A stretch of DNA of 64,000 bases, taken from positions 864,001 to 928,000 of the forward strand of contig QVRM01005607.1 in the NCBI GenBank assembly GCA_003439945.1, in the 5' to 3' direction. Source of the stretch: Dermanyssus gallinae (lineage: Eukaryota > Arthropoda > Arachnida > Mesostigmata > Dermanyssidae). A program made the position numbers and the translations under genes. The notes beneath the pieces were generated by a model. That model did no database searches. It was not told the DNA's origin and saw only the letters and a program-made list of their open reading frames with translations. How positions within the stretch are numbered: position 1 is the stretch's first letter; each line of letters opens with the position of its first letter. Below are positions 7,871-64,000 of this stretch, in pieces.

Positions 7871-8925
7871 TCCGTCTCCTTCCCAGCACTGGCCGATCAG
7901 CAGCAGCAGCAGCAGGTCCCGGTGTCTGAGGACAAAGGGGGTTGGTAAAGGCACACTAGGGCGACGCTAAATAATGAGATCAACAGCGTATCGTTCAAGC
8001 TGGAGCGCACTTCTGCAGGTTACAGTAGAAGACCGAAACGCACTGTCTGGCCCGCCTTATTCCTTTTCTCCGGCCAGACTTTGTGTTGACAAGCACGATG
8101 ATTCACCGATAGGTGTAGCCGCTACCGGCGCTGCTTACGGAATCATTGCATGAGTGAGATAATTATCGTGTCCCTGTTAGAGCTGCTGGTGCAATTAGTG
8201 CGTACGTTCCGCCTTCGAGTAGAGGCGAATCAGGGTGGCTGAAAAGACAGGGAGTTACAGGCAGGAAATTAAACAGGACTAGCGAGTTGGACGAGAGTCC
8301 GGGCCCGGCTGAAGTGCTTTATTCGTCAGCGAATCTCCGGCGGCTTCTACTCGATCATCCCTCGCAGCCAGCTCACCTTGTTCCATGTCCCACTTTCGTC
8401 CAGGGAAAAGCCGTTAACCTTGCAACGCACACTTTTTTTTGTATTGAACTCAGCGAACAGATAGGAGTTTTTAACCGACCACGCCGAAACCTGTCGAATC
8501 TGCAGTTGGTGTCCAGTAACCTACTGTTCTTACAGAGAGGTGTGCGCTGAAGCCTCGGCCCCTCTCTATATTACACAACATGTGCTTTCAGAGCGACGGG
8601 AAAGAACAAGCAGGCAAAAACGAGAGAGATGTAGGTGTTTGAAAGAACTGGCTTAATATAGCCGCTTCAATCGCATGCTGTCCGTTACAATGACGTGCAG
8701 CGGCGCCCCGAAGGGCTCGACTGTGTGTGTCTATGTGGATACGAAAACAATCTACTAGGTATTGTCAGCTAATAACAAATGGCTCGCTTGCTCTTGTAAG
8801 ACAGCTGGACTGTAAGGCGGCCTTAAGTCTCCCGTGTGGCTATATCAGGACCAAGCAAAAATCTTTACCGCACACCACCGTAACAAGCTAAATGAACAGC
8901 GCCGCCACCGCCGCTGTCATCGTTC
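7871..8925. other. No recognisable feature apart from a short CAG tract
   Basis: A short CAG run lies at about 7898-7914. The frame at 8287-8550 (+) has no recognisable motif. The rest holds nothing I can support. Confidence 0.35.
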
Positions 8926-9119
8926 TTGTTGTTGTTGTCGTCGTCGTCATTGTTGTTGTTGTCGTCGTTGTTGTTTTTGTTGTTGTTGTTGTTGTTGTTG
9001 TCGTCGTCATTGTTTTTGTTGTTGTTGTTGCTGTCGTCGTCATCATTGTTTTTGTTGTTGTTGTTGTCGTCATTGTTGTTGTTGTTGTTGTTGTTGTGGC
9101 TGCCGTTGTTGTGGCTGCC

Positions 9120-9150
<31 letters not shown>

Positions 9151-9510
9151 CTGCTGTTGCGGTCGTCGTCATTGTTGTTGTTGTGGCTGCCGTTGTTGTT
9201 GTCGTAGTCGTCGTTGTTGTTGTTGCTGTCGTCGTTGTTGTTGTTGCTGTCGTCGTTGTTGTTGTTGCTGTCGTCGTCATTGTTGTTGTCGTTGTTGTCG
9301 TCGTTGTTACCGTTATTGTTGTTGTTGTCGTCGTTGTTACCGTTATTGTTGTTGTTGCTGTCGTCGTCATTGTTGTTGTCGTTGTTGTCGTTGTTGTTGT
9401 CGTCGTTGTTACCGTTATTGTTGTTGTTGTCGTCGTTGTTACCGTTGTTATTGTTGTTGTTGCTCTTGTTATTCTTGTCGTTTTAGTTGTTGTTGTTGTT
9501 TCTGCTAACG
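8926..9510. repeat. 585-bp imperfect GTT/GTC trinucleotide array
   Basis: Almost uninterrupted GTT triplets punctuated by GTC, ATT, GCT and ACC variants. Larger blocks recur inside it, for example segments ending in GTTACCGTTATTG near 9300-9320, 9335-9355, 9405-9422 and 9435-9450, so blocks of about 30-120 bases have themselves been duplicated. All three plus frames and the minus frame stay open (poly-Val, poly-Leu, poly-Cys, poly-Thr). That follows from the triplet repeat and is not evidence of a gene. Confidence 0.9.
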
Positions 9511-12304: not shown

Positions 12305-12358
12305 AAATACGATGCGCTGACTTCACTAATTGCGGCGTAGGGTTTTTATTAAATTGTA
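12305..12358 (+). repeat. Short dispersed repeat, related to 13.98-14.04 kb
   Basis: The segment reading TGCGCTGACTTCACTAATTG followed by CGGCG and a T-rich run is similar to 13983-14030. It directly precedes the SINE that starts near 12361. Confidence 0.5.
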
Positions 12359-12360
12359 GC

Positions 12361-12645
12361 GGCGAGGCCTAGGGAATCAGTGCGCTATTCATGAATGTCA
12401 TTTACCGGGGAGTCGCCGGTTCGATCCCTGTTGTTGATCGAATTTCTTTGAGCGATGCTCATTGACGATAAACCATTCGAGAGTCACCGGCCATGTCGCC
12501 ACAAGGGGTGTTAGGGAAACCCTAGATATGTTCTGTTCACAGTGCACTGAAGATATGCCTTTCATTGGTTGAGTTCCTAGCCCGTAGGGGACGGAAGATG
12601 ATTTAGAATTAAGAACAACCTCCTTAAAAATGTTTTTAATTATAG
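12361..12645 (+). mobile_element. SINE (family 1), plus strand
   Basis: A head of about 100 bases contains GGTTCGATCCC (about 12418-12428), a good RNA polymerase III B-box of the tRNA type. A body of about 170 bases follows, ending in a segment with AAGAACAACCTCCTTAAAAA. The same head and body occur in reverse orientation at 63.30-63.52 kb, and the head alone at 48.03-48.15 kb. Three copies with a shared 5' boundary and a pol III box indicate a tRNA-derived SINE. The A-box is weak. Confidence 0.65.
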
Positions 12646-16139: not shown

Positions 16140-17035
16140 CTGGACGTGGTGTTTAATGGGAAAAAAAACACAATTTTAGTATTTAATGGGGTTAGGAGAA
16201 AAGGAAACTTGTGGTGCAGAGGACGGAATTGGGCTAAACAAGTCAGTACAAGTACCTTGGGGTACGGGATATTACGGAGGAAGAAGGCTGAAAGAAGAAA
16301 AAATACAGTAAGGTGCAAGGGCCTCAGGAGGTTTAATAAATATATAATAACAAGAAATATATGAAAAGCCATGTATATGCCAGATTTAGTGTTGGCTAAT
16401 GCCTCTCTGGTCCACAGTGCGGAGTTGGAAAAGAAGTGAGAAACATTACAAAGATAAGTGGTACGATTTGCATTGGGATTGCCGTTTTAATTGCGCTAGG
16501 GAGTTTGTTGAGGGGAAAGAGGGATGTCAAAATGTATATAAGGGGAAGTATAAAAGTAAGCTAAGATTAAGCGTTAGGTTTAAAATGTCACACACAAAAG
16601 ATGAGTTAAACAGATGCAGCTGGTAAAGACGGCTCTAAGGATCGAAATGTAGGAAAGAATCGCACAGTAGAGTTTGCAGCTAGGGATATTGGGTGCAATA
16701 GTCAGCAATGGGCAAAAGATGAGTTAAACAGATGCAGCTGGTAAAGACGGCTCTAAGGATCGAAATGGAGGAAAGAATCGCACAGTAGAGTTTGCAGCTA
16801 GGGATATTGGGTGCAATAGTCAGCAATGGGCAAGAGCGAGGGTATCGGAGACAATGATGAAATTGAAGGTAAACAAGTCATATACAGGCAAATGAAATTT
16901 GGCGATGGGTTCCAGATAAAGTTTGGCAGGTACACATGGAAATGAAAAGCAGGAAAAGCGGGGTAGAATGAGTATACGACAGTTTAAGAGCGAGTGGGCT
17001 ATTGGACAGGGATGGTAGATACTCTTAATCAATCA
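16140..17035 (+). pseudogene. LINE family A relic, 3' half, part 1
   Basis: This segment parallels the downstream half of the longer family A copy at 41.5-44.7 kb. Both carry an AGAAAAGGAAACTTGTGG-like block, a GGAGGAAGAAGGCTGAAAGA-like block, then CTCTCTGGTCCACAG-like and CAGATGCAGCTGGTAA-like blocks, all in the same order. The reading frame is broken by stops throughout. A 118-bp tandem duplication lies inside it. Its expected 3' end is missing here and appears at 18.2-18.5 kb, with minus-strand LINE B sequence between, so the element was probably interrupted by a later insertion. Confidence 0.6.
16599..16834 (+). repeat. 118-bp tandem duplication inside LINE A
   Basis: The block starting GAGTTAAACAGATGCAGC at 16603 begins again at 16721 with only a few mismatches, so the period is 118 bases. 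The family A copy at 44.4 kb has this block once, so the duplication is specific to this copy. Confidence 0.9.
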
Positions 17036-31636: not shown

Positions 31637-33232
31637 CAGTCACTGAAAAAATATAGGGCCACCCATGTTTGCCGCATTTCACGCATTTATTATAACCGAT
31701 TGTGTAAAGATCATAATGATACATGATCACAGAGTAACAGCGGATACTTTTATCGACATTTGGAGTATCGGGTTACCTTAAAACACGAGATTTCGACATT
31801 TGGCACAGCTACGCTGCGAAAAAATTATAAAGTCACCACCAAGATGCATGTCTTAGCGAGTGAATTGAGTGGAATAACAACGTTTGGGCTCATTTCACGG
31901 CACCTAACAACTATACTTAATATTTAGTGAACTTCCCATTACGTCGGATAGCTTCAAAAATGCGGTTTGGTATAGTGTTGAACAAATTTTGGATGACGTC
32001 CTGCGAGAGCTCGTCCCAAGCCTTCACACTTGCTTTTTTTTAGTTCTACCTGGTTCGAAAATTGTTTTTCGTCGGTGTAAACCTTTCGGGCGAGCCAGCC
32101 CCATACATTTTCGATAATATTAAGACCAGGTGAGACTGCAGGCCAGCGTAGGACCTCAATGTGGCGTTGTTCGAACCAGCTTTCGATCAACTTAGCAGTG
32201 TGAATCGGGGCATTATCGTGTTGAAAAACAAAGTCGGGTCCTCCCATCAGCTCAAAATGTGCGGATTGCTCTTCTAGTTGATCCCTATAGCGCGTCGAAT
32301 TAACACAACCGTCTAAACACACAATCGGCGACCTTGTATAATACCCGACAGCGGCCCAGATCATCACCGAACCGCCACCTGAGTGCCGTTTTGACAAAAA
32401 ACGTTCTTCCTTGCGCACATTGTGGAAATAATAGCTAATCCATCCGGTCCATCACAATTGAACTTTTTTTCATCTGAAAAGAGCACTCGGTGCCATTCAG
32501 TGGTCCATAACATCGTAACCTAGGCAAAGTCGAGACGAGCTTTCTGATGCTCAGCGGTCAATCGTGGTATTCTCTCAAGTTTTTTTCTCGTGAGCCAAAG
32601 TGTCTTCCTAAGGAGGTTTTGCACATTTCGCACGTTTGCACACCGGCCGCCGCCGCAATTGCCTTTGCCGAGAGCACAGAGTTCGAGGCTATCTTCAAAA
32701 TTGCGCGCTTGTTTCGTTCCGAAATGGCATTTGGACGCCCCGGACTCTTTTTTACGCCGTATTTTTCACCCAAATTCACGAAGTTGTTCACTACTTGGCG
32801 AAAACGCCCCAATCGACGGGAAATTTGCCGATTAGAGAGGCCTTATAAGCCGACATCCTTATAAGCCTTGATTTGGATATTTTCGTCACTCGTGAGACGC
32901 CGACCCAAACCCATCGTTTCAGCACAGAAAAATTTCTGGTAGGAGGTCTGCTTTCGTTTCCGTCGAGCCGTGAAATGAGCCCAAACGTTGTTATTCCACT
33001 CAGTTCACTCGCTAAGACATGCATTTTGGTGGTGACATTATAATTTTTTTGCAGCGTAGCTGTGCCAAATGTCGAAATCTCGTGTTTTAAGGTAACCCGA
33101 TACTCCAAATGTCGATAAAAGTATCCGCTGTTACTCTGTGAGCATGTATCATTATGATCTTTACACAATCGGTTATAATAAATGCGTGAAATGTGGCAAA
33201 CATGGGTGGCCCTATATTTTTTTCAGTGACTG
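31637..33232 (-). mobile_element. Tc1-like transposon with 264-bp terminal inverted repeats
   Basis: Both ends start CAGTCACTGAAAAAA when read inward. The left repeat is 31637-31900 and the right repeat 32969-33232, nearly identical over 264 bases. TA dinucleotides flank both ends. Inside is one minus-strand transposase gene (separate entry). Long inverted repeats of this size are at the high end for Tc1 elements, which often have shorter ones. The strong similarity of the two ends suggests the copy is not very old, although its transposase is already broken. Confidence 0.9.
31954..32914 (-). pseudogene. Tc1-family transposase, frameshifted
   Basis: The start is the ATG at 32914, giving MGLGRRLTSDENIQIKAYKD. 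An in-frame TAA follows about 25 codons in. The helix-turn-helix DNA-binding region follows (GRFRQVVNNFVNLG, then SPGRPNAISERNKRAILKIA). The frame then shifts near 32560. The first catalytic Asp is in LFSDEKKFN (about 32480-32455), with another shift around 32420. The last part is open: GGGSVMIWAAVG, QHDNAPIH (second Asp) and SPGLNIIENVWGWLARK (Glu). The D-D34E spacing places it in Tc1 rather than mariner. All catalytic residues survive but the frame does not, so no full protein can be made. Confidence 0.85.
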
Positions 33233-48029: not shown

Positions 48030-48148
48030 ATGGTTTATCACCAATTTTTTAATGAGCATCGATTAAGAAAATACGAACAACAACAATGAAATCGGCGACA
48101 CCCCGGTAAGTGACAACCATGATGAGCGCCCTAGCTGCAATGACAACC
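48030..48148 (-). mobile_element. SINE family 1 copy, minus strand
   Basis: On the minus strand, TGTCACTTACCGGGGTGTCG and GATGCTCATT-type blocks match the head of the copy at 12361-12470 in the same order. The B-box is degraded here. The body was not aligned. Confidence 0.55.
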
Positions 48149-48211: not shown

Positions 48212-51200
48212 AGCTCGTTCTCAGAACCAGCTAGTTTTTAGAATTAGCTTGTCCTTAGAACCAGCTCGTCGTTAGAACCGGCTCGTTCTTAGAACCGGCT
48301 CGTTCTTAGAACCGGCTTGCCCTTATTACCGATTCGTTCTTAAAACCAGCTCGTTCTTAAAACCGGCGCGTTCTTAGAACCGTCTTGTTCTTAGAACCGT
48401 CTTGTTCTTAGAACCGTCTTGTTCTTAGAACCAGCTCACTCGTAGAACCGGCTCGTCGTTAGAACCGGCTCGTCGTTAGAACCGGCTCGTCGTTAGAACC
48501 GGCTCGTCGTTAGAACCGGCTCGTTCTTAGAACCAGCTCGTTCTTGAAACCCGCAAGTTCTTGTAACCAGCTCGTTCATAAAACCGTCTTGTTCTTAGAA
48601 CCAGCTTGTTTTAAGAACCAGCTTGTCCTTAGAACCAGCTTGTTCTTAGAACCAGCTTGTTTTCAGAACCTGCTTGTTCTTAGAACCAGCTTGTCCTTAG
48701 AAGCAACTTGTTCTAACCACCGGTTTGTTTTTAGAACCAGCTTATTCTAAGAACCGACTCGTTCTTAAAACCGGTTTGTTTTTAAAATCGTCTTGTTCGT
48801 AGAACCGTCTTGTTGTTAGAACCAGCGTGTCCTTAGAACCGTCTTGTTCTTAAAACCAGCTCGTCATTAGAACCGGTTTGTTCTTAAAACCAGCCCGTCG
48901 TTAGAACCAGCTCGTTGTTAGACCCGGCTGGTTCTTAGAACCGACTCATTCTTAAAACCGCTCCTTCTTAAAACCGGCTCCTTCTTAAAACCGGCTCCTT
49001 CTTAAAACCGGCTCCTTCTTAAAACCGGCTCGTTCTTAGAACCGGCTTGTTCTTAGGACCAGCTTGTTATTAGAACCGTCCGGTTCTTATAACCTGCTTG
49101 TTCTTAGAACCGTCTTCTACTTAGAATCAGCTTGTTCTTAGAACCATCTCGTTCTTAGAACTAGCTTGTTCTTAGAACCAGCTCGTCGTTAGAATCGGCT
49201 TGTTCTTAGAACCAGCTCGTTTTTAGAACCAGCTTGTTATTAGAACCGGCTTGTTTTTAGAACCGGCTCGCTCGTTCTTAGAACCGTCTTGTTCTTATAA
49301 CCAGCTTGTTATTAGAACCGGCTTGTTCTTAAAACCGTCTTGTTCTTAGAACCAGCTTGTTCTTAAAACCGTCTTGTTCTTAATACCGGCTTGTTCTTGG
49401 AACTGACTTGTCCTTAGAATCCGCTCGTTCTTTGAATTAGCTTGTTCTTAGAACGGTCTCGTTCTTAGAACCAACTCGCTCTTAAAATCGTCTTGTTCTT
49501 AGAATCAACTTGTCCTTAGAACCGTCTTGTCCTTAGAACCGTCTTGTTCTTAGAACCGTCTTGTTCTTAAAACCAGCTTGCTTTTAGAACCAGCTCGTCA
49601 TTAGAGCCGGCTTGTTCTTAGAACCAGCCCGTCGTTAGAACCAGCCCGTCGTTAGAACCAGCTCGTCGTTAGAACCGGCTCTTTGTTTTTTGGAACCGGC
49701 TTGTTCTTAGAACCGGCTCGTTTTTAGAACTGGCTCGTTCTTAGAACCGGCACGTTCCTAGAACCGGCTTGTCCTTAGAACCGGCTCGTTTTTAGAGCCG
49801 GCTTGTTTTTAGAACTAGCTCGCCGTTAAAGCCGGTTCGTTTGTAGAACCGGCTCGTCCTTATTACCGGTTCGTTCTCAAAACCGTCTTTTTTTAGACCC
49901 AGTCTGTCCTTAGAACCGTCTCGTTCGTAGAACCAGCTTGTTCTTTGAACCAGCTCGTCATTAGAGCCAACTTGTTCTTAGAACCAGGTCGTCGTTAGAA
50001 CCGACTCGTTCTTGAAACCAGCTTATCCTTAGAACCAGCTTGTCGTTAGAACCGGCTCCTTCTTAGAACCGGCATCTTCTTAAAACCGGCTTGTCCTTAG
50101 AACCGTCTTGTTCTTAGAACCGTCTTGTTCTTAAAACCAGCTTGCTCTTAGAACCAGCTCGTCATTAGAGCCGGCTTGTTCTTAGAACCAGCCCGTCGTT
50201 AGAACCAGCCCGTCGTTAGAACCAGTCCGTCGTTAGAACCAGCTCGTCGTTAGAACCGGCTCTTTGTTTTTTGGAACCGGCTTGTTCTTAGAATCGGCTC
50301 GTTTTTGGAACTGGCTCGTTCTTAAAACCGGCTCGTTCCTAGAACCGGCTTGTCCTTAGAACCGGCTTGTCCTTAGAACCGGCTCGTTTTTAGAGCCGTC
50401 TCGTTTTTAGAGCCGGCTTGTTCTTAGAACTAGCTCGCCGTTAAAGCCGGTTCGTTCGTAGAACCGGCTCGTCCTTATTACCGGTTCGTTCTCAAAACCG
50501 TCTTTTTTTTAGACCCAGTCTGTCCTTAGAACCGTCTTGTTTGTAGAACCAGCTTGTTCTTTGAACCAGCTCCTCATTAGAGCCAACTTGTTCTTAGAAC
50601 CAGGTCGTCGTTAGAACCGACTCGTTCTTGAAACCAGCTTATCCTTAGAACCAGCTCGTCGTTAGAACCGGCTTGTTCTTAGAACCGGCTCGTTCTTAAA
50701 ACCGGCTTGTTCTTAAAACCGGCTTGTTATTAGAACCGGCTTATTCTTAGAACCGGCTCGTTCTTAGAACCGGCTTGTTCTCAGAACCAGCTTGTTATTA
50801 AGAACCGGCTTGTTCATAGAACCCAGCCCGTTCTTAGAATCAGCTCGTTCTTAGAACCAGCTCGTTCTTAGAACCACCTTGTCCTTACAACCGCCTTGTT
50901 CTTAGAACCACCTTGTCCCTAGAACCAGCTCGTTCTGAGAACCGGCTTGTTCCTAGAACCGGCTCGTTCTTAGAACGGGCTCGTTCTTAAAACCGGCTCG
51001 TTCTTACAACCAACTTGTTCTTAGAACCGCCTTGTCCTTAGAACCAGCTTGTCCTTAGAACCGTCTTGTTCTTAGAACCAGCTTGTCTTTAGAATTAGCT
51101 AGTCCTTAGAACCGTCTTTTTCTTAGAACCAGCTCGTTTTTAAAACCGGCTCGTTTTTAGAATCAGCTCGTTCTTAGAACCGGCTCATTTTTAGAACCAG

Positions 51201-54200
51201 CTTGTCCTTAGAACCGTCTTGTCCTTAGAACCGTCTTGTTCTTAGAACCGTCTTGTCCTTAGAACCAGCTCTTCATTAGAGCCGGCTTGTTCTTAGAACC
51301 AGCCCTTGCTAGAACCAGCTCGTCGTTAGAACCGGCTCGTCCTTGGAACCGACTTGTTCTTAGAACCGGCTCGTTCTTAGAACCAGTTCGTTATTAGAAC
51401 CGGCTCGTCCTTATTACCGGTTCGTTCTCAAAACCGTCTTTTTTTAGACCCAGTCTGTCCTTAGAACCGTCTCGTTCGTAGAACCAGCTTGTATTTTGAA
51501 CCAGCTCGTCATTAGAGCCAACTTGTTTTTAGAACCAGGTCGTCGTTAGAACCGACTCGTTCTTGAAACCAGCTTATCCTTAGAACCAGCCCGTCGTTAG
51601 AACCGGCTCCTTCTTAAAACCGGCTTGTTTTTAGGACCGGCTCGTTCTTAAAACCGGCTTGTTCTTAAAACCGGCTTGTTCTTAGAACCGGCTTGTTCTT
51701 AGAACCGGCTCGTTCTTAGAACCGGCTTGTTCTCAGAACCGGCTTGTTATTAAGAACCGGCTTGTTCATAGAACCGGCTCGTTCTTAAAACCGGCTCGTT
51801 TTTAGAACCGGCTTGCTCCTAAAACCGGCTTGTTCTTAAAGCCAGCCCGTTCTTAGAATCAGCTCGTTCTTAGAACCAGCTCGTTTTTAAAACCGGCTGG
51901 TTTTTAGAATCAGCTCGTTCTTAGAACCGGCTCATTTTTAGAACCAGCTTGTCCTTAGAACCGTCTTGTCCTTAGAACCGTCTTGTTCTTAGAACCGTCT
52001 TGTCCTTAGAACCATCTTGTTCTTAGAACCGTCTTGTTCTTAGAACCAGCTCGTCGTTAGAACCGGCTCGTCCTTGGAACCGACTTGTTCTTAGAACCGG
52101 CTCGTTCTTAGAACCAGTTCGTTATTAGAACCGGCTCGTTCTTAGAACCGGCTCGTCCTTATTACCGGTTCGTTCTCAAAACCGTCTTTTTTTAGACCCA
52201 GTCTGTCCTTAGAACCGTCTCGTTCGTAGAACCAGCTTGTTCTTTGAACCAGCTCCTCATTAGAGCCAACTTGTTCTTAGAACCAGGTCGTCGTTAGAAC
52301 CGACTCGTTCTTGAAACCAGCTTATCCTTAGAACCAGCTCGTCGTTAGAACCGGCTTGTTCTTAGAACCGGCTCGTTCTTAAAACCGGCTTGTTCTTAAA
52401 ACCGGCTTGTTCTTAGAACCGGCTTATTCTTAGAACCGGCTCGTTCTTAGAACCGGCTTGTTCTCAGAACCGGCTTGTTATTAAGAACCGGCTTGTTCAT
52501 AGAACCCAGCCCGTTCTTAGAATCAGCTCGTTCTTAGAACCAGCTCGTTCTTAGAACCACCTTGTCCTTACAACCGCCTTGTTCTTAGAACCACCTTGTC
52601 CCTAGAACCAGCTCGTTCTGAGAACCGGCTTGTTCCTAGAACCGGCTCGTTCTTAGAACGGGCTCGTTCTTAAAACCGGCTCGTTCTTACAACCAACTTG
52701 TTCTTAGAACCGCCTTGTCCTTAGAACCAGCTTGTCCTTAGAACCGTCTTGTTCTTAGAACCAGCTTGTCCTTAGAATTAGCTAGTCCTTAGAACCGTCT
52801 TTTTCTTAGAACCAGCTCGTTTTTAAAACCGGCTCGTTTTTAGAACCGGCTCATTTTTAGAACCAGCTTGTCCTTAGAACCGTCTTGTCCTTAAAACCGT
52901 CTTGTTCTTAGAACCGTCTTGTCCTTAGAACCAGCTCTTCATTAGAGCCGGCTTGTTCTTAGAACCAGCCCTTGCTAGAACCAGCTCGTCGTTAGAACCG
53001 GCTCGTCCTTGGAACCGACTTGTTCTTAGAACCGGCTCGTTCTTAGAACCAGTTCGTTATTAGAACCGGCTCGTTCTTAGAACCGGCTCGTCCTTATTAC
53101 CGGTTCGTTCACAAAACCGTCTTTTTTTAGACCCAGTCTGTCCTTAGAACCGTCTCGTTCGTAGAACCAGCTTGTCCTTTGAACCAGCTCGTCATTAGAG
53201 CCAACTTGTTCTTAGAACCAGGTCGTCGTTAGAATCGACTCGTTCTTGAAACCAGCTTATCCTTAGAACCAGCCCGTCGTTAGAACCGGCTCCTTCTTAG
53301 AACCGGCTTGTTCTTAGAACCGGCTCGTTCTTAAAACCGGCTTGTTCTTAGAACCGGCTTGTTCTTAGAACCGGCTCGTTCTTAGAACCGGCTTGTTCTC
53401 AGAACCGGCTTGTTATTAAGAACCGGCTTGTTCATAGAACCGGCTCGTTCTTAAAACCGGCTCGTTTTTAGAACCGGCTTGCTCCTAAAACCGGCTTGTT
53501 CTTAAAGCCAGCCCGTTCTTAGAATCAGCTCGTTCTTAGAATCAGCTCGTTCTTAGAACCAGCTCGTTTATAAAACCGGCTGGTTTTTAGAATCAGCTCG
53601 TTCTTAGAACCGGCTCATTTTTAGAACCAGCTTGTCCTTAGAACCGTCTTGTCCTTAGAACCGTCTTGTTCTTAGAACCGTCTTGTCCTTAGAACCATCT
53701 TGTTCTTAGAACCGTCTTGTTCTTAGAACCAGCTCGTCATTAGAGCCGGCCCTTGCTAGAACCAGCTCGTCGTTAGAACCGGCTCGTCCTTGGAACCGAC
53801 TTGTTCTTTGAACCGGCTCGTTCTTAGAACCAGTTCGTTATTAAAACCGGCTCGTTCTTAGAACCGGCTCGTTCTTAGAACCGGCTCGTCCTTATTACCG
53901 GTTCGTTCTCAAAACCGTCTTTTTTTAGACCCAGTCTGTCCTTAGAACCGTCTCGTTCGTAGAACCAGCTTGTTCTTTGAACCAGCTCCTCATTAGAGCC
54001 AACTTGTTCTTAGAACCAGGTCGTCGTTAGAACCGACTCGTTCTTGAAACCAGCTTATCCTTAGAACCAGCTCGTCGTTAGAACCTGCTTGTTCTTAGAA
54101 CCGGCTCGTTCTTAAAACCGGCTTGTTCTTAAAACCGGCTTGTTCTTAGAACCGGCTTATTCTTAGAACCGGCTCGTTCTTAGAACCGGCTTGTTCTCAG

Positions 54201-56900
54201 AACCGGCTTGTTATTAAGAACCGGCTTGTTCATAGAACCCAGCCCGTTCTTAGAATCAGCTCGTTCTTAGAACCAGCTCGTTCTTAGAACCACCTTGTCC
54301 TTACAACCGCCTTGTTCTTAGAACCACCTTGTCCCTAGAACCAGCTCGTTCTGAGAACCGGCTTGTTCCTAGAACCGGCTCGTTCTTAGAACGGGCTCGT
54401 TCTTAAAACCGGCTCGTTCTTACAACCAACTTGTTCTTAGAACCGCCTTGTCCTTAGAACCAGCTTGTCCTTAGAACCGTCTTGTTCTTAGAACCAGCTT
54501 GTCCTTAGAATTAGCTAGTCCTTAGAACCGTCTTTTTCTTAGAACCAGCTCGTTTTTAAAACCGGCTCGTTTTTAGAATCAGCTCGTTCTTAGAACCGGC
54601 TCATTTTTAGAACCAGCTTGTCCTTAGAACCGTCTTGTCCTTAGAACCGTCTTGTTCTTAGAACCGTCTTGTCCTTAGAACCAGCTCTTCATTAGAGCCG
54701 GCTTGTTCTTAGAACCAGCCCTTGCTAGAACCAGCTCGTCGTTAGAACCGGCTCGTCCTTGGAACCGACTTGTTCTTAGAACCGGCTCGTTCTTAGAACC
54801 AGTTCGTTATTAGAACCGGCTCGTTCTTAGAACCGGCTCGTCCTTATTACCGGTTCGTTCACAAAACCGTCTTTTTTTAGACCCAGTCTGTCCTTAGAAC
54901 CGTCTCGTTCGTAGAACCAGCTTGTCCTTTGAACCAGCTCGTCATTAGAGCCAACTTGTTCTTAGAACCAGGTCGTCGTTAGAATCGACTCGTTCTTGAA
55001 ACCAGCTTATCCTTAGAACCAGCCCGTCGTTAGAACCGGCTCCTTCTTAGAACCGGCTTGTTCTTAGAACCGGCTCGTTCTTAAAACCGGCTTGTTCTTA
55101 GAACCGGCTTGTTCTTAGAACCGGCTCGTTCTTAGAACCGGCTTGTTCTCAGAACCGGCTTGTTATTAAGAACCGGCTTGTTCATAGAACCGGCTCGTTC
55201 TTAAAACCGGCTCGTTTTTAGAACCGGCTTGCTCCTAAAACCGGCATGTTCTTAAAGCCAGCCCGTTCTTAGAATCAGCTCGTTCTTAGAACCAGCTCGT
55301 TTATAAAACCGGCTGGTTTTTAGAATCAGCTCGTTTATAAAACCGGCTGGTTTTTAGAATCAGCTCGTTCTTAGAACCGGCTCATTTTTAGAACCAGCTT
55401 GTCCTTAGAACCGTCTTGTCCTTAGAACCGTCTTGTTCTTAGAACCGTCTTGTCCTTAGAACCATCTTGTTCTTAGAACCGTCTTGTTCTTAGAACCAGC
55501 TCGTCATTAGAGCCGGCTTGTTCTTAGAACCAGCCCTTGCTAGAACCAGCTCGTCGTTAGAACCGGCTCGTCCTTGGAACCGACTTGTTCTTAGAACCGG
55601 CTCGTTCTTAGAACCAGTTCGTTATTAGAACCGGCTCGTTCTTAGAACCGGCTCGTCCTTATTACCGGTTCGTTCTCAAAACCGTCTTTTTTTAGACCCA
55701 GTCTGTCCTTAGAACCGTCTCGTTCATAAAACCAGCTTGTTCTTTGAACCAGCTCGTCATTAGAGCCAACTTGTTCTTAGAACCAGGTCGTCGTTAGAAC
55801 CGACTCGTTCTTGAAACCAGCTTATCCTTAGAACCAGCCCGTCGTTAGAACCGGCTCCTTCTTAGAACCGGCTTGTTCTTAGAACCGGCTCGTTCTTAAA
55901 ACCGGCTTGTTCTTAAAACCGGCTTGTTCTTAGAACCGGCTTGTTCTTAGAACCGGCTCGTTCTTAGAACCGGCTTGTTCTCAGAACCGGCTTGTTATTA
56001 AGAACCGGCTTGTTCATAGAACCGGCTCGTTCTTAAAACCGGCTCGTTTTTAGAACCGGCTTGCTCCTAAAACCGGCTTGTTATTAAAGCCAGCCCGTTC
56101 TTAGAATCAGCTCGTTCTTAGAACCAGCTCGTTCTTAGAACCAGCTCGTTCTTAGAACCAGCTCGTTCTTAGAACCACCTTGTCCTTACAACCGTCTTGT
56201 TCTTAGAACCACCTTGTCCTTAGAACCAGCTCGTTCTGAGAACCGGCTCGTTCCTAGAACCGGCTCGTTCCTAGAACCGGCTCGTTCTTAGAACGGGCTC
56301 GTTCTTAAAACCGGCTCGTTCTTACAACCAACTTGTTCTTAGAACCGCCTTGTCCTTAGAACCAGCTTGTCCTTAGAACCGTCTTGTTCTTAGAACCAGC
56401 TTGTCCTTAGAATTAGCTAGTCCTTAGAACCGTCTTGTTCTTAGAACCAGCCCTTTATTAGAGCCTGATTGTTTTTAGAACCGTCTTTTTCTTAGAACCA
56501 GCTCGTTTTTAAAACCGGCTCGTTTTTAGAACCAGCTCGTTCTTAGAACCGGCTCATTTTTAGAACCAGCTTGTCCTTAGAACCGTCTTGTTTTTAGAAC
56601 CGTCTTGTCCTTAGAACCGTCTTGTCCTTAGAACCATCTTGTTCTTAGAACCGTCTTGTTCTTAGAACCAGCTCGTCATTAGAGCCGGCTTGTTCTTAGA
56701 ACCAGCCCTTGCTAGAACCAGCTCGTCGTTAGAACCGGCTCGTCCTTGGAACCGATTTGTTCTTAGAACCGGCTCGTTTTTAGAACCAGTTCGTTATTAG
56801 AACCAGTTCGTTATTAGAACCGGCTCGTTCTTAGAACCGGCTCGTTCCTAAAACCGGCTTGTCCTTAGAACCGGCTCGTTCTTAGAGTCGGCTTGTTCTT
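48212..56900. repeat. 8.7-kb minisatellite of 17-bp units with higher-order structure
   Basis: The unit is close to GCTCGTTCTTAGAACCG (17 bases), repeated about 510 times without a break. Common variants change the first triplets (GCTTG, GTCTTG, GCCCG) and the core (TCCTTAGAA, TCGTTAGAA, TTTTTAGAA, TTCTTAAAA). GTTCTTAGAAC is an 11-base palindrome. A rare variant (AGACCCAGTCTG) occurs at about 49895, 50511, 51446, 52194, 53129, 53927, 54879 and 55694. Spacings of 748, 935 and 952 are exact multiples of 17, and alternate spacings sum to about 1.68-1.77 kb, so the right two thirds is a tandem higher-order repeat of four or so blocks. The left third is less regular. Open frames inside simply follow the repeat. 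Confidence 0.95.
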
Positions 56901-59488: not shown

Positions 59489-59506
59489 GCTGGACGAATT
59501 ATTAAA

Positions 59507-59792
59507 GTGGGACGAATTATTAAAAATATGCGACAGGTATCCATACAAGGTACAATGTAAAGGTGGAACACTAGAATTCAACTCACAATACATTTTCATA
59601 ACAAGTAATATACACCCTGAAAAATGGTACAAATTCGACGGATACAACGTAGCTGCTCTCATGAGACGCTGCTCACTACTCATCAATACTGACCCCGACA
59701 TTATACCTGAAGCTAAATGGGAAACGCCCAATGGAACATTAGATGATATACCTACTGAATTAATAAACGCATGGAATTTGGAACAAACATAA
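59507..59792 (+). pseudogene. Rep C-terminal fragment of the CRESS virus
   Basis: Starts at KWDELLKICDRY without a start codon and runs through motif C (ITSN) to the natural stop TAA at 59790-59792. It is the only copy in the window that keeps the true Rep C-terminus after PDIIPEA. Immediately upstream, 59492-59506 repeats the first bases (GGACGAATTATTAAAG), a micro-duplication at the integration edge. It ends 13 bases before the convergent capsid stop codon. Confidence 0.85.
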
Positions 59793-59805
59793 CTTTTATT
59801 GTCTT

Positions 59806-60741
59806 TTATCCGTTATAAGCATATTCAATACCTCCTATAGAATGTAACGATGTAGGACTAATAAATCCAACTTTGTTTGTTGTATATGTTTTGAACTTTG
59901 CATATGCAATTGTAGCAGATATTATAACTTTAAATCTGTATGCTTGTAGTAATGCTGTAGTATCTCCGGGTATCTTATATTTACACCATGCAATTATTGG
60001 TCCATTCAAATGAGTAGCTTCTGTACGGATAGGAATCCAATGGTTTTTTGGTTTTTGTTCTAATACTTGTGCGCCGGTCAATTTATATAGATATTTCGGT
60101 TTTATAATCCAATTCTGTTGCACTGATGGATCAAATAATTTTGCACCTTGTCCGTTTAAAAACTTGTCTATATCTGTTGGTACACTTAAATCAATGTGAT
60201 AGGACTTAACTCAAGATGGAGTAGACCGTTGATCATTTTTCGCGACTTCATCCAAATTTGGCTTCGCATGTGTCTCAGGTATAAACCTAATCTTATAGAA
60301 AAGCACCTTTAAATGAGTATATTGCTTTCCAATTTCATCTTTTAAATCCTGAATCAACGATACAGGGAAACAAAATCTTTGTACTCCTCCTTTATTACTT
60401 AAAGTAGTTATTATTCCAGTGTTTGGGGCAGAAAAAGATCCTTCGAGGTGCCTGATAACACGTGTAACAAACTTAAACCGACATCTACGCTTCCTTTTAA
60501 AAGTATTAATAGCAGAGTGAACACTCGTGCCTGACCACGGTGGATTCGCGTTAGCAAAATGTCGTAACCATCCACCATTTGATCCACTTCCAACTGCTGT
60601 CGCTAATAGAACCGGCGCACCGTGCTGTAGAATATCCTGAATCGCACCACTCATTCCCGGTCGAGGTCTCCTCTTAAGTGTAGATAATCTTCGATAGGCT
60701 CCTAGCCTATCTAACTCAATTGATGCCATTGATATGACCAA
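59806..60741 (-). pseudogene. CRESS virus capsid gene with internal stop
   Basis: The frame runs from an ATG at 60741 (an alternative ATG lies a few codons on) to TAA at 59808-59806, 311 codons, with one in-frame TGA at 60213-60211 about 176 codons in. The N-terminal part is Arg/Lys-rich (RRLSTLKRRPRPG), as in circovirus capsids, where it binds DNA. The body has a Trp/Tyr/Gly pattern consistent with a beta-rich shell protein, but capsids diverge too fast for me to name a relative. The assignment rests mainly on position, convergent orientation to Rep, and the basic N-terminus. The length is at the long end for the family. Confidence 0.65.
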
Positions 60742-60935
60742 TTACGAAGCGCATCGCGATAGGTCCTTCTAGAATGAAACGCAACACTTAAACGACACAT
60801 CCTCAAAAAAAATGCTGACGCATTATACTGTCTCTTTGCTCTCTGTAATCTCTCAAGTGACCCTTGATAAAAAAAATCGGATAACCTATACCACCGGAGA
60901 TAAGACACAAACGACCCTCTCCGCGGTCGAGCCAT
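60711..60935 (-). other. Small basic frame upstream of the capsid
   Basis: A 74-codon ATG frame overlapping the capsid start by about 31 bases in another frame. It is rich in Arg and Tyr (MARPRRGSFVSYLRWYRLSD). It may be the original capsid N-terminus separated by a frameshift, or a separate small viral frame. It starts 56 bases from the origin stem. Confidence 0.45.
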
Positions 60936-60990
60936 GACTGCCCTTTCTCAAAAAGGAATGGACTATATATACCCTGTCACAGCGTCAAGC

Positions 60991-61022
60991 CACACGGGTG
61001 GGTAATACTAACCACTCGTGTG
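60991..61022. promoter_or_regulatory. Viral replication origin stem-loop, intact
   Basis: Arms 60991-61001 and 61012-61022 pair over 11 bases with one G/T mismatch. The 10-base loop 61002-61011 holds GTAATACTA, which on the minus strand is TAGTATTAC, the circovirus-type nonanucleotide nicked by Rep in rolling-circle replication. It sits in the 91-base gap between the divergent 5' ends of the capsid-side frame and Rep. Confidence 0.85.
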
Positions 61023-61026
61023 CGTG

Positions 61027-61889
61027 ATGGACCCCGCTGCAAATAAAACCGCACGCCGGTGGTACTTTACTCTCAACAACTGGACACCACCCGAGTTGGA
61101 CACATTGACTGAAAGACTTTCCTTTTTGTGTTCTTTTGCCATTATAGGAAAGAAAAAAGGAGAACAAGGAACACCTCATCTACAAGGATACTTCGTACTT
61201 AAAAGCCCGAAACGGTTTTCTGGACTGAAATTAATTCTTCCATGTGCTCATATCGAAATCGCTAAAGGAACTCACAAGCAGAACATCACATACTGCGGAA
61301 AAGAAGATGACAACCCCTGGATCACTGGCTCATTACCCGGAAAAAACAACAATGACTTGTACCTTGATCTTGCCTGCTCAGCTTGCACTGAGTCTTCTAC
61401 GAATAGGTACACTACAGCCGCTAAAGATTACCCTTCTATATTTGTTAAATATTGGAGAGGTTTTCAAGAATTGTACAGGATCGCTAATACAATACCCAGC
61501 AGAACACAAATGTTCAAATTGTTTATCTTCTATGGCCCACCTAGAACAAATAAAAGTCGAGTGTCCCACGAAGTATCATCCAGACTTGGAACCACATATT
61601 ATAAAAACAGAGGCCAATGGTGGGATCATTACACACAGGAAACCTCTGTTGTTATAGATGACTTTTATGGATGGATAAAGTGGGACGAATTATTAAAAAT
61701 ATGCGACAGGTATTCATACAAGGTACAATGTAAAGGTGGAACACTAGAATTCAACTCACAATACATTTTCATAACAAGTAATATACACTCTGAAAAATGG
61801 TACAAATTCGACGGATACAACGTGGCTGCTCTTATGAGACGCTGCTCACTACTCATCAATACTGACCCCGACATTATACCTGAAGCTAA
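61027..61889 (+). pseudogene. CRESS virus Rep, copy 1 (plus)
   Basis: I start it at the ATG 61027 (MDPAANK); an upstream GTG would overlap the origin stem. Rep nicks the origin and unwinds DNA. Domain order: endonuclease motif I FTLNNW (14-19), motif II PHLQGY (50-55), motif III YCGK with the catalytic Tyr (89-92), Walker A GPPRTNKS (170-177), Walker B VVIDDF (208-213), motif C ITSN (249-252). The Walker A Gly before Thr is Arg here, which should impair ATP binding. The viral frame is intact for 287 codons. It then runs into the inverted copy and reads antisense to a stop at 62005-62007. The natural C-terminus is lost. Confidence 0.85.
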
Positions 61890-61914
61890 TGAACAATATA
61901 AAAAAAAATATTGT
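61888..61914. other. Inverted-duplication junction between the two Rep copies
   Basis: Homology of copy 1 ends after TGAAGCTAA (about 61889). Homology of copy 2 begins near 61911. The bridge is a small palindrome, CAATAT, then A8, then ATATTG (about 61894-61913). The bridging bases match neither Rep copy. Confidence 0.75.
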
Positions 61915-62645
61915 GAGTTGAATTCTAGTGTTCCACCTTTACATTGTACCTTGTATGGATACCTGTCGCATATTTTTAATAATTCGTCCCACTTTATCCA
62001 TCCATAAAAGTCATCTATAACAACAGAGGTTTCCTGTGTGTAATGATCCCACCATTGGCCTCTGTTTTTATAATATGTGGTTCCAAGTCTGGATAATACT
62101 TCGTAGGACACTCGATTTTTATTTGTACCAGGTGGGCCATAGAAGATAAACAATTTGGACATTTTTGTTCTACTGGGTATTGGATTAGCGATTCTGCACA
62201 ATTCTTGAAAACCTCTCCAATATTTAACAAATATAGAAGGGTAATCTTTAGCGACTGTAGTGTATCCATTCGTAGAAGACTCAGTGCAAGCTGAGCAGGC
62301 AAGATCAAGGTACGAGTCATTGTTGTTTTTTCCGGGTAATGAGCCAGTGATCCAGGGGTTGTCATCTTCTTCTCCGCAGTATGTGATGTTCTGCTTGTGA
62401 GTTCCTTTAGCGATTTCGATATGAGCACGTGGAAGAATTAATTTCAATCCAGAAAACCGTTTCGGGCTTTTAAGTACGAAGTATCCTTGTAGATGAGGTG
62501 TTCCTTGTTCTCCTTTTTCCTTTCCTATAATGGCAAAAGAACACAAGAAGGAAAGTCTTTCAGTAAATGTGTCCAACTCAGGTGGTGTCCAGTTGTTGAG
62601 AGTAAAGCACCACCGGCGTGCGGTTTTATTTGCAGCGGGGTCCAT
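61911..62645 (-). pseudogene. CRESS virus Rep, copy 2 (inverted, truncated)
   Basis: Starts at ATG 62645 and covers about 245 of the expected residues, roughly 93% identical in protein to copy 1 (about 17 differences by eye). Walker A is intact (GPPGTNKN), but motif III reads YCGE instead of YCGK, losing the conserved Lys. The frame leaves viral coding after EFNSQY, so motif C and the C-terminus are missing. It is tail-to-tail with copy 1. The lesions differ from those of copy 1, so the copies have diverged separately or came from different viral molecules. Confidence 0.85.
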
Positions 62646-62674
62646 CACGCACACGGGTGGTTAGTATTACCCAT
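62646..62674 (+). promoter_or_regulatory. Half origin at the right edge of the viral insertion
   Basis: CACACGGGTGG and then TAGTATTAC at 62662-62670 match the intact origin. Similarity stops about three to five bases after the nonanucleotide, so the second stem arm is absent. The boundary therefore falls at the Rep nick-site region. Confidence 0.8.
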
Positions 62675-63301: not shown

Positions 63302-63515
63302 GTAAAAAAAAACATTTTTAAGGAAATTGTTTTTAATTTTAGACCATCATCTGTCCTTCATGGGCCTGGAATCGTCATGATGCACATCTTTAATGCACCG
63401 AGAGCCGGACAGGTCAACAAGCATTGCTCAATGAAAAATCGATCAACAACCGGAATCAAACTGGCGACACCCCGGTAGATGACAATCGTGACTAGCGTAC
63501 TAGACCCCCTAGACC
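63302..63515 (-). mobile_element. SINE family 1 copy, minus strand
   Basis: On the minus strand the head (TTGTCATCTACCGGGGTGTC, then GTTTGATTCC as a B-box remnant, then GTTGTTGATCG) and the body ending in CAATTTCCTTAAAAATG match the copy at 12361-12645 from end to end, with a shorter middle. Confidence 0.65.
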
Positions 63516-64000
63516 ACGTCGCCACACGGAAATGTCTACCACGCCTACTTCCTGCTCTCGGGACCCTGGCAATGATGCCGGTCCGCTCTAGTCAACTGGA
63601 AGCATTATGGCCTTCAACTAACGAATGCATATGCCTGCAGTGCTTAACCTCCAGCTTATAACTAGGCGTATAAGTAAACATTCTAGATGTATAAGCAAAA
63701 TTATTTGCTCATAGCTATTCTATTGGGTGGGGAGCAGCCAGGCCCTCATGGTCTCGACGCACCCTCACAGGACGGATTACAAAATGGCATTTCGCTATCC
63801 AACCGCAGGTAGTCATGCGGGATGATAGTCAGGGATAGAGCTGATTAAAGGAGAACGGCAGAGACGCCTCTCCCACGGCTTCGATGTAATGCCAAAGTAA
63901 TACCGAGCCTGGGGGAAGGGGAGGAATCCGGGTTTAGTGGGTTTGCGAGTCTCATACTAGTCACGCAGGCTGGTAGTGGCGCATGTGCATCATGCATTCC
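63516..64000. other. Unrecognised; possible LINE 3' UTR motif
   Basis: No coding sequence recognised. GGTTTAGTGGGT at 63931-63942 matches the motif at 37511-37523 and 44884-44897, so this may be the 3' untranslated part of another R1-like LINE on the plus strand. Confidence 0.3.

What the first reader, a model, noticed from the sequence alone, without database searches (positions are those of the whole stretch)
59490..62674. Longer-than-unit-length endogenous CRESS virus with both rep and cap
The integrated unit (about 2,173 bases from 59507 to 61680) is followed by a repeat of its first 210 bases, so more than one genome length was captured. That fits a rolling-circle concatemer as donor. 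Most endogenous CRESS elements are Rep fragments. A copy holding rep, cap and an intact origin stem-loop in an animal genome is unusual and gives a nearly complete record of an ancestral virus.
Basis: partly seen in the sequence, partly recalled or inferred. Interest (0 to 1): 0.9.

Follow-up and report, generated by a model that had tools for sequence, protein, structure and literature searches.

The report
Palindromic endogenous cyclovirus, likely mite host
An animal chromosome, probably that of a mite, carries the decayed remains of a small circular DNA virus captured as a bit more than one genome length followed by a mirror-image copy of its replication gene, a fossil that bears on how such viruses get trapped in host DNA.

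Summary
A 2,173-nt unit (59503-61675) is followed by a repeat of its first 214 nt (4 differences). Rep is a circovirid Rep, closest to Red mite associated cyclovirus 1 (71% aa), on the cyclovirus side of a Rep tree. The origin motif lies on the presumed capsid strand, as in cycloviruses. "Cap" rests on position, a decayed frame more open than in 1000 shuffles and an Arg-rich first piece; no capsid homology was found. No gene is intact. The two rep copies differ as neutral DNA would (nonsynonymous 17.5 of 24; 17.4 of 25 expected), so they probably drifted after insertion, which argues against misassembly and free virus. Mite cyclovirus-like insertions and tandem full-length circovirus insertions are already published, so this is a new member of a known kind with an unusual palindromic layout. 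Host species and read-level junctions remain untested.

The parts
59492..59506 (+). 15-nt near-tandem duplicate of viral bases (repeated at 59510-59524) at the left host-virus junction; small templated insertion or slippage
   Evidence: sequence
59503..61675 (+). one full 2173-nt viral unit, circularly permuted, starting inside the helicase part of rep
59503..59792 (+). C-terminal part of rep, ending in its own TAA
59806..60210 (-). third piece (134 codons) of the presumed capsid frame; its stop lies 13 nt from the rep stop
60211..60741 (-). second piece (176 codons) of the presumed capsid frame, in frame with the third but closed by an internal stop
   Evidence: no homologue
60711..60947 (-). 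first piece (78 codons, 15 Arg) of the presumed capsid frame, in another frame
60991..61022 (-). origin hairpin; nonanucleotide TAGTATTAC at 61002-61010 on the presumed capsid strand; one stem mismatch
61027..61889 (+). forward rep copy from its ATG to the truncation; HUH endonuclease (Viral_Rep) and SF3 helicase (RNA_helicase) domains; open, with a substitution at a Walker A residue otherwise invariant in the alignment used
61676..61889 (+). direct repeat of 59503-59716 (4 mismatches)
61890..61902 (.). A-rich filler at the inner inverted junction
61903..62673 (-). inverted copy of 60999-61769: rep from its ATG (62645) into the helicase domain, plus half of the origin hairpin
62662..62673 (+). 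nonanucleotide TAGTATTAC plus 3 nt; viral sequence ends 5 nt past the predicted nick (62668/62669)
   Evidence: nick position from ICTV profile PMC5656780

Best explanation
This is a germline-type (endogenous) insertion of a cyclovirus-like member of the Circoviridae, close to Red mite associated cyclovirus 1, in an animal genome that is probably a mite's. The inserted DNA was a replication by-product rather than a single genome: a rolling-circle molecule of one unit plus 214 nt, joined through a short A-rich filler to a reversed stretch that runs back through rep and stops at the replication origin. The likeliest course is that a replicating strand overran one unit, switched to the opposite strand near 61769-61889, was copied back to the nicked origin and ended there; host end joining (filler at the inner junction, a 15-nt templated duplicate at the left) then sealed it into a chromosome break without a target-site duplication. 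Afterwards it decayed, mostly neutrally, as a fossil. Shown: the arrangement, the Rep kinship, the near-neutral divergence of the copies. Inferred: strand switching, end joining, the mite host, the capsid identity, germline inheritance.
For: Arrangement and exact 2173 spacing. Rep: Viral_Rep 4.4e-15 and RNA_helicase 2.5e-12, closest solved chain 7lar_A at 4.8e-49, Red mite associated cyclovirus 1 at 1e-144, 71% identity; a 60-row ML tree groups both window copies with it (100/99) on the cyclovirus side. [quoted passage not shown] PMC5656780). The two rep copies differ at 24 sites in 244 codons with dN/dS 0.72; nonsynonymous 17.5 against a neutral 17.4 +/- 2.2 for 25 random changes; 22 of 27 differences in the inverted repeat are transitions: drift after insertion. 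The outer end lies 5 nt past the nick site: 11/2173 = 0.5% for one random breakpoint, about 2% over the four viral breakpoints (my arithmetic). Right-flank repeats recur left of the element at 12.4-12.6 kb and 48.1 kb, so the same repeat families lie on both sides. A review cites template strand switching in porcine circovirus replication (Cheung 2004, seen only in the reference list of PMC3187698) and calls origins of circular ssDNA viruses recombination hot-spots (passage, same call).
Against: No read-level proof of the junctions. Host not identified: the one host ORF searched gave 0 hits and the own-genome search did not complete (8 tries). The viral end is not exactly at the nick. The inner breakpoints (61769, 61889) have no special feature that I saw. 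Decay is uneven: of 18 differing residues, 12 are derived in the forward copy, 3 in the inverted copy (2 without the junction codon) and 3 are unresolved (two-sided binomial p 0.035, or 0.013 without the junction codon, the latter my arithmetic), which a simple equal clock does not predict.
Confidence: 0.62

Rival explanations
1. Two separate linear viral molecules, one longer than a unit and one partial, were ligated head-to-head by host end joining during the same integration event; no strand switch took place.
For: Filler of about 13 nt at the inner junction and a templated duplicate at the left end are what end joining leaves (the inference is general knowledge). The copies show divergences of the same order: 27 of 771 (25 without the inner edge) and 4 of 214.
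Against: Does not by itself explain why the inverted stretch ends at the origin, nor why it starts within 120 nt of the end of the forward copy, though both could be coincidence.
Confidence: 0.28
2. The inverted copy arose after integration, by a local inverted duplication in the host chromosome.
For: Host DNA can form inverted duplications by fold-back synthesis (general knowledge). Divergence between the arms (27 of 771, 3.5%) and between the direct copies (4 of 214, 1.9%) cannot exclude a somewhat different age.
Against: The duplicated stretch contains no host sequence and ends at the viral origin; the arms differ more, not less, than the direct repeat.
Confidence: 0.1
3. Misassembly or a fold-back read artefact, or free virus stitched onto host DNA.
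For: Palindromes are a known assembly and long-read artefact (general knowledge); no reads were available; the element lies 1.3 kb from the window's end.
Against: The arms differ at 27 of 771 sites with no indel and mostly transitions; these changes are nonsynonymous at the neutral rate and hit conserved Rep residues in both copies, unlike sequencing error or a live virus.
Confidence: 0.05
4. The inverted rep copy was kept by the host as a gene (a Rep-derived interfering protein), while the forward copy decayed.
For: The inverted copy keeps an open frame and fewer derived changes (3, or 2 without the junction codon, against 12); those two fall on near-invariant residues of motif III and Walker A, as in a catalytically dead version.
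Against: Small numbers; the forward copy is open too; no stop in 25 changes has a 35% chance under neutrality; the frame runs on into antisense sequence; no expression data; the pooled dN/dS of 0.72 fits the neutral count.
Confidence: 0.04

Closest known systems
Red mite associated cyclovirus 1 (taxid 2936547; Dermanyssus gallinae RNA-seq, PMC10183022)
   Same: Nearest Rep, 71% identity over 98%; contig 2260 nt against a unit of 2173 nt; sister in the Rep tree at 100/99.
   Different: Reported as part of the mite's virome from RNA-seq (section 13 read), not as an insertion; its Rep is a single full-length protein; its capsid could not be compared. That the database record and the paper's 'red mite associated cyclovirus' are the same is inferred from the name.
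Endogenous cyclovirus-like rep elements of Varroa destructor and Tropilaelaps mercedesae (PMC6069186, PMC3198968; passages read)
   Same: Mite genome, cyclovirus-like Rep.
   Different: PMC6069186 states that its new elements all derive from rep and none showed homology to circovirus cap; the passages read describe no full unit or inverted array.
CVe-Cypriniformes, tandem complete circovirus genomes in carp and Sinocyclocheilus (PMC6372831; passages read)
   Same: Multiple complete genomes in tandem, listed as Rep-Cap.
   Different: Sister to barbel circovirus (genus Circovirus side), vertebrate host; no inverted copy mentioned in the passages read.
Hymenolepis microstoma endogenous cyclovirus with rep and partial capsid (PMC6186406; passages read)
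   Same: Cyclovirus-derived insertion holding both rep and capsid sequence in an invertebrate.
   Different: Tapeworm host; capsid found by similarity there, not here.

Membership tests
Circoviridae | Rep with HUH endonuclease and SF3 helicase domains | tested here: met
   PF02407 and PF00910 above Pfam's cut-off in both longer rep copies
[quoted passage not shown]
   TAGTATTAC at 61002-61010 (minus), hairpin z -3.2 with one stem mismatch; definition from PMC5656780
Circoviridae | Capsid gene on the strand opposite rep, homologous to circovirid capsids | tested here: inconclusive
   Open frame on the opposite strand: longest run 176 codons against a maximum of 161 in 1000 shuffles; 2 stops against a minimum of 6; no homology, each given only some or separate pieces
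Circoviridae | Genome of 1.7-2.1 kb | tested here: not met
   Repeat spacing 2173 nt, slightly above the 2017 range; the nearest virus contig is 2260 nt. Marginal; no membership of a formal species is claimed
genus Cyclovirus | Origin motif on the same strand as cap | tested here: met
   Motif and presumed capsid frame both on the minus strand, rep on plus; conditional on the capsid assignment, but the motif is certainly on the strand opposite rep
genus Cyclovirus | Little or no gap between the 3' ends of rep and cap | tested here: met
   Rep stop ends at 59792, presumed capsid stop begins at 59806
genus Cyclovirus | Rep groups with cycloviruses | tested here: met
   60-row ML tree: with Red mite cyclovirus 100/99, wider group of 10 rows 99/92; the branch of the whole cyclovirus side is 80/90
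Endogenous viral element | Joined to host DNA on both sides and inherited | tested here: inconclusive
   Same repeat families left and right of the element and near-neutral decay; no reads or orthologous locus
Rep-mediated integration | Junction exactly at the nick site | tested here: inconclusive
   Right end is 5 nt past the nick; left end is in rep

The most novel reading that the evidence does not exclude
The insertion froze an actual strand-switching replication intermediate of a cyclovirus, with its free end at the Rep-cut origin serving as the end joined to the chromosome; that is, Rep nicking, not only random breakage, helped integration and left a viral palindrome in a germline.
Probability: 0.2. 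Interest if true: 0.62.

Novelty: new member of a known kind. Interest (0 to 1): 0.42.

Why it matters
It ties a cyclovirus lineage with a slightly large genome to (probably) a mite host, gives a fossil that covers a whole unit rather than a rep fragment, and holds two or three copies of the same stretch, probably laid down together, an internal clock. If other insertions also end at the origin, it would show how ssDNA viruses without an integrase enter germlines.

Tried and rejected
Rejected: simple head-to-tail concatemer (it cannot give 61903-62673). Rejected: differences between copies as standing variation of a live virus, because they are not dominated by synonymous changes. Rejected: a second Rep elsewhere in the window (120 Rep proteins by tblastn at E<=1; outside the element only weak hits, best E 0.008). 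Target-site duplication: longest word shared by the two host edges is 5 nt, not at the edges. Iterons: no repeated 7-mer in 60948-61027. Rfam: 0 hits at gathering threshold in the window.

Led nowhere: three viral-contig scans, 4, 68 and 7 pattern matches, 0 relatives; capsid piece protein search, 71 candidates, 0 hits (1 of 3 pieces given); host ORF search, 7125 candidates, 0 hits; capsid pieces against solved structures, 0 hits (2 of 3 pieces); six host ORFs against Pfam, 1 of 6 with a hit; bacterial promoter scan, not informative for an animal. Tree input: 58 of the 120 listed proteins (of 252 found) plus 2 window rows; the other 62 listed were left out for size.

Full report
What is there. 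The interval holds a direct repeat of 214 nt at a spacing of exactly 2173 nt (59503-59716 and 61676-61889; 4 mismatches) and an inverted repeat of 771 nt (60999-61769 against 61903-62673; 27 mismatches, two of them at the inner edge; no indels). In order: host, a 15-nt near-tandem duplicate of viral bases (59492-59506), one complete 2173-nt unit, 214 nt of a second unit, about 13 nt of A-rich filler, 771 nt in reverse orientation, host.

What it encodes. The plus-strand frame from the ATG at 61027 is a circovirid Rep: PF02407 and PF00910 above Pfam's cut-offs, best solved relative 7lar_A (4.8e-49), best protein Red mite associated cyclovirus 1 (1e-144, 71% over 98%). The inverted copy (ATG at 62645, minus strand) gives the same two domains. 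The forward copy is cut at 61889; the C-terminal end of rep with its stop lies only in the left piece, 59503-59792. So there is no contiguous intact rep. Opposite rep, 60947-59806 on the minus strand carries three open pieces (78, 176 and 134 codons) in two frames, with an internal stop between the second and third. Over 59806-60741 the best frame has 2 stops and the longest open run is 176 codons; 1000 dinucleotide shuffles gave at least 6 stops and at most 161 codons. The first piece has 15 arginines in 78 residues. Position and an Arg-rich start suggest a capsid gene (the Arg-rich N-terminus as a circovirid trait is recalled, not from a call), but no homology was found. The protein search accepts only candidates of 0.55 to 1.75 times the query's length, so a capsid longer than about 308 residues would have been missed by the one piece searched.

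Origin. TAGTATTAC, which fits the family's motif, lies on the minus strand at 61002-61010 within a hairpin that folds better than all of 200 shuffles (-8.9 kcal/mol, z -3.2), with a mismatch in the stem. Motif and presumed capsid share a strand, and only 13 nt separate the 3' ends of the two frames. Both are ICTV marks that separate Cyclovirus from Circovirus (PMC5656780, whole text read). The unit is slightly longer than the 1.7-2.1 kb stated there.

Kinship. A maximum-likelihood tree of 60 Reps (2 window copies and 58 of the 120 listed relatives, of 252 found) joins the two window copies (100/99), then Red mite associated cyclovirus 1 (100/99), then an unnamed protein from a 2252-nt contig (100/97), inside a group on the cyclovirus side (that side's own branch 80/90). 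A red mite associated cyclovirus is reported from poultry red mite RNA-seq (PMC10183022, section 13 read). Hence a mite host is likely, but the window's species was not identified: the one host ORF searched gave nothing and the genome search did not complete (8 tries).

Endogenous or artefact. The two rep copies differ at 24 sites over 244 codons with dN/dS 0.72; 17.5 nonsynonymous changes stand against 17.4 +/- 2.2 for 25 random, transition-biased changes. A replicating virus would be expected to show mostly synonymous differences, and long-read errors to include indels (general knowledge). Both copies carry substitutions at near-invariant residues: Walker A in the forward copy, motif III and Walker A in the inverted copy (motif names recalled). 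That 25 changes made no stop has a 35% chance, so the open frames need no selection. Repeats of the right flank recur to the left of the element at 12.36-12.64 kb and 48.06-48.13 kb, and a 38-nt left-flank match lies at 25.8 kb, so the same repeat families lie on both sides. This argues against contamination or free virus; reads would settle it.

Mechanism. A unit plus 214 nt in direct order is what a rolling-circle product gives. The reversed stretch needs a strand switch or the joining of a second molecule. It runs back to the origin and ends 5 nt past the nick (positions 7/8 of the motif, PMC5656780), a coincidence of about 0.5% for one random breakpoint and about 2% over four (my arithmetic). 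A review notes that origins of circular ssDNA viruses are recombination hot-spots and cites work on template strand switching in porcine circovirus (PMC3187698, passages and reference list). I favour strand switching with run-off at the origin followed by host end joining; ligation of two molecules is the main rival. There is no target-site duplication at the edges, as expected without an integrase.

Against the simple story. Of 18 differing residues, 12 are derived in the forward copy, 3 in the inverted copy (2 without the junction codon) and 3 are unresolved (two-sided p 0.035, or 0.013 without that codon by my arithmetic). The left piece differs from the middle copy at three residues, one of them at the junction; at the other two the middle copy departs from Red mite cyclovirus (alignment). 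Uneven decay could be chance among small numbers, local differences in mutation, or weak constraint on the inverted copy; the last would be the most interesting and is not shown.

Age (inference). About 3.3% between copies means about 1.6% per copy; with a recalled arthropod rate near 3e-9 per site per generation this is of the order of five million generations, with wide error.

Novelty. Endogenous cyclovirus-like rep elements in Varroa and Tropilaelaps, complete circovirus genomes in tandem in cyprinid fish and rep-cap elements in other vertebrates, and a tapeworm cyclovirus element with rep and partial capsid are published (passages read). PMC6069186 states that its new elements were all from rep. 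In 10 literature searches of the open PMC set I saw no mite element with a full unit or an inverted arm, judging by listings and the passages read; subscription papers and preprints are not covered. Verdict: a new, fairly well-preserved member of a known kind with an uncommon palindromic layout.

Noticed in passing
48213-56900: An 8.7-kb satellite array with a 17-bp unit (about 510 copies, 77% matches), ending 2.6 kb left of the element.
   Followed up: no
31954-32451 (-): Piece of a DDE transposase (PF13358 DDE_3, 5.8e-16); Tc1/mariner-type by recall.
   Followed up: no
8922-9500: Long imperfect trinucleotide array with long open frames across it in several registers.
   Followed up: no
16595-16833: Tandem duplication of a 118-bp unit, 2 copies, 99% alike.
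   Followed up: no
63308-63526, also 12355-12637 and 48055-48134: Dispersed host repeat in the right flank, pieces 75-84% alike between copies.
   Followed up: partly
61027-61889 versus 61903-62645: Uneven decay of the two rep copies: 12 against 3 (or 2) derived amino-acid changes.
   Followed up: partly
59503-62673: CpG observed/expected 0.83 in the element against 1.09 in the window left of it.
   Followed up: no
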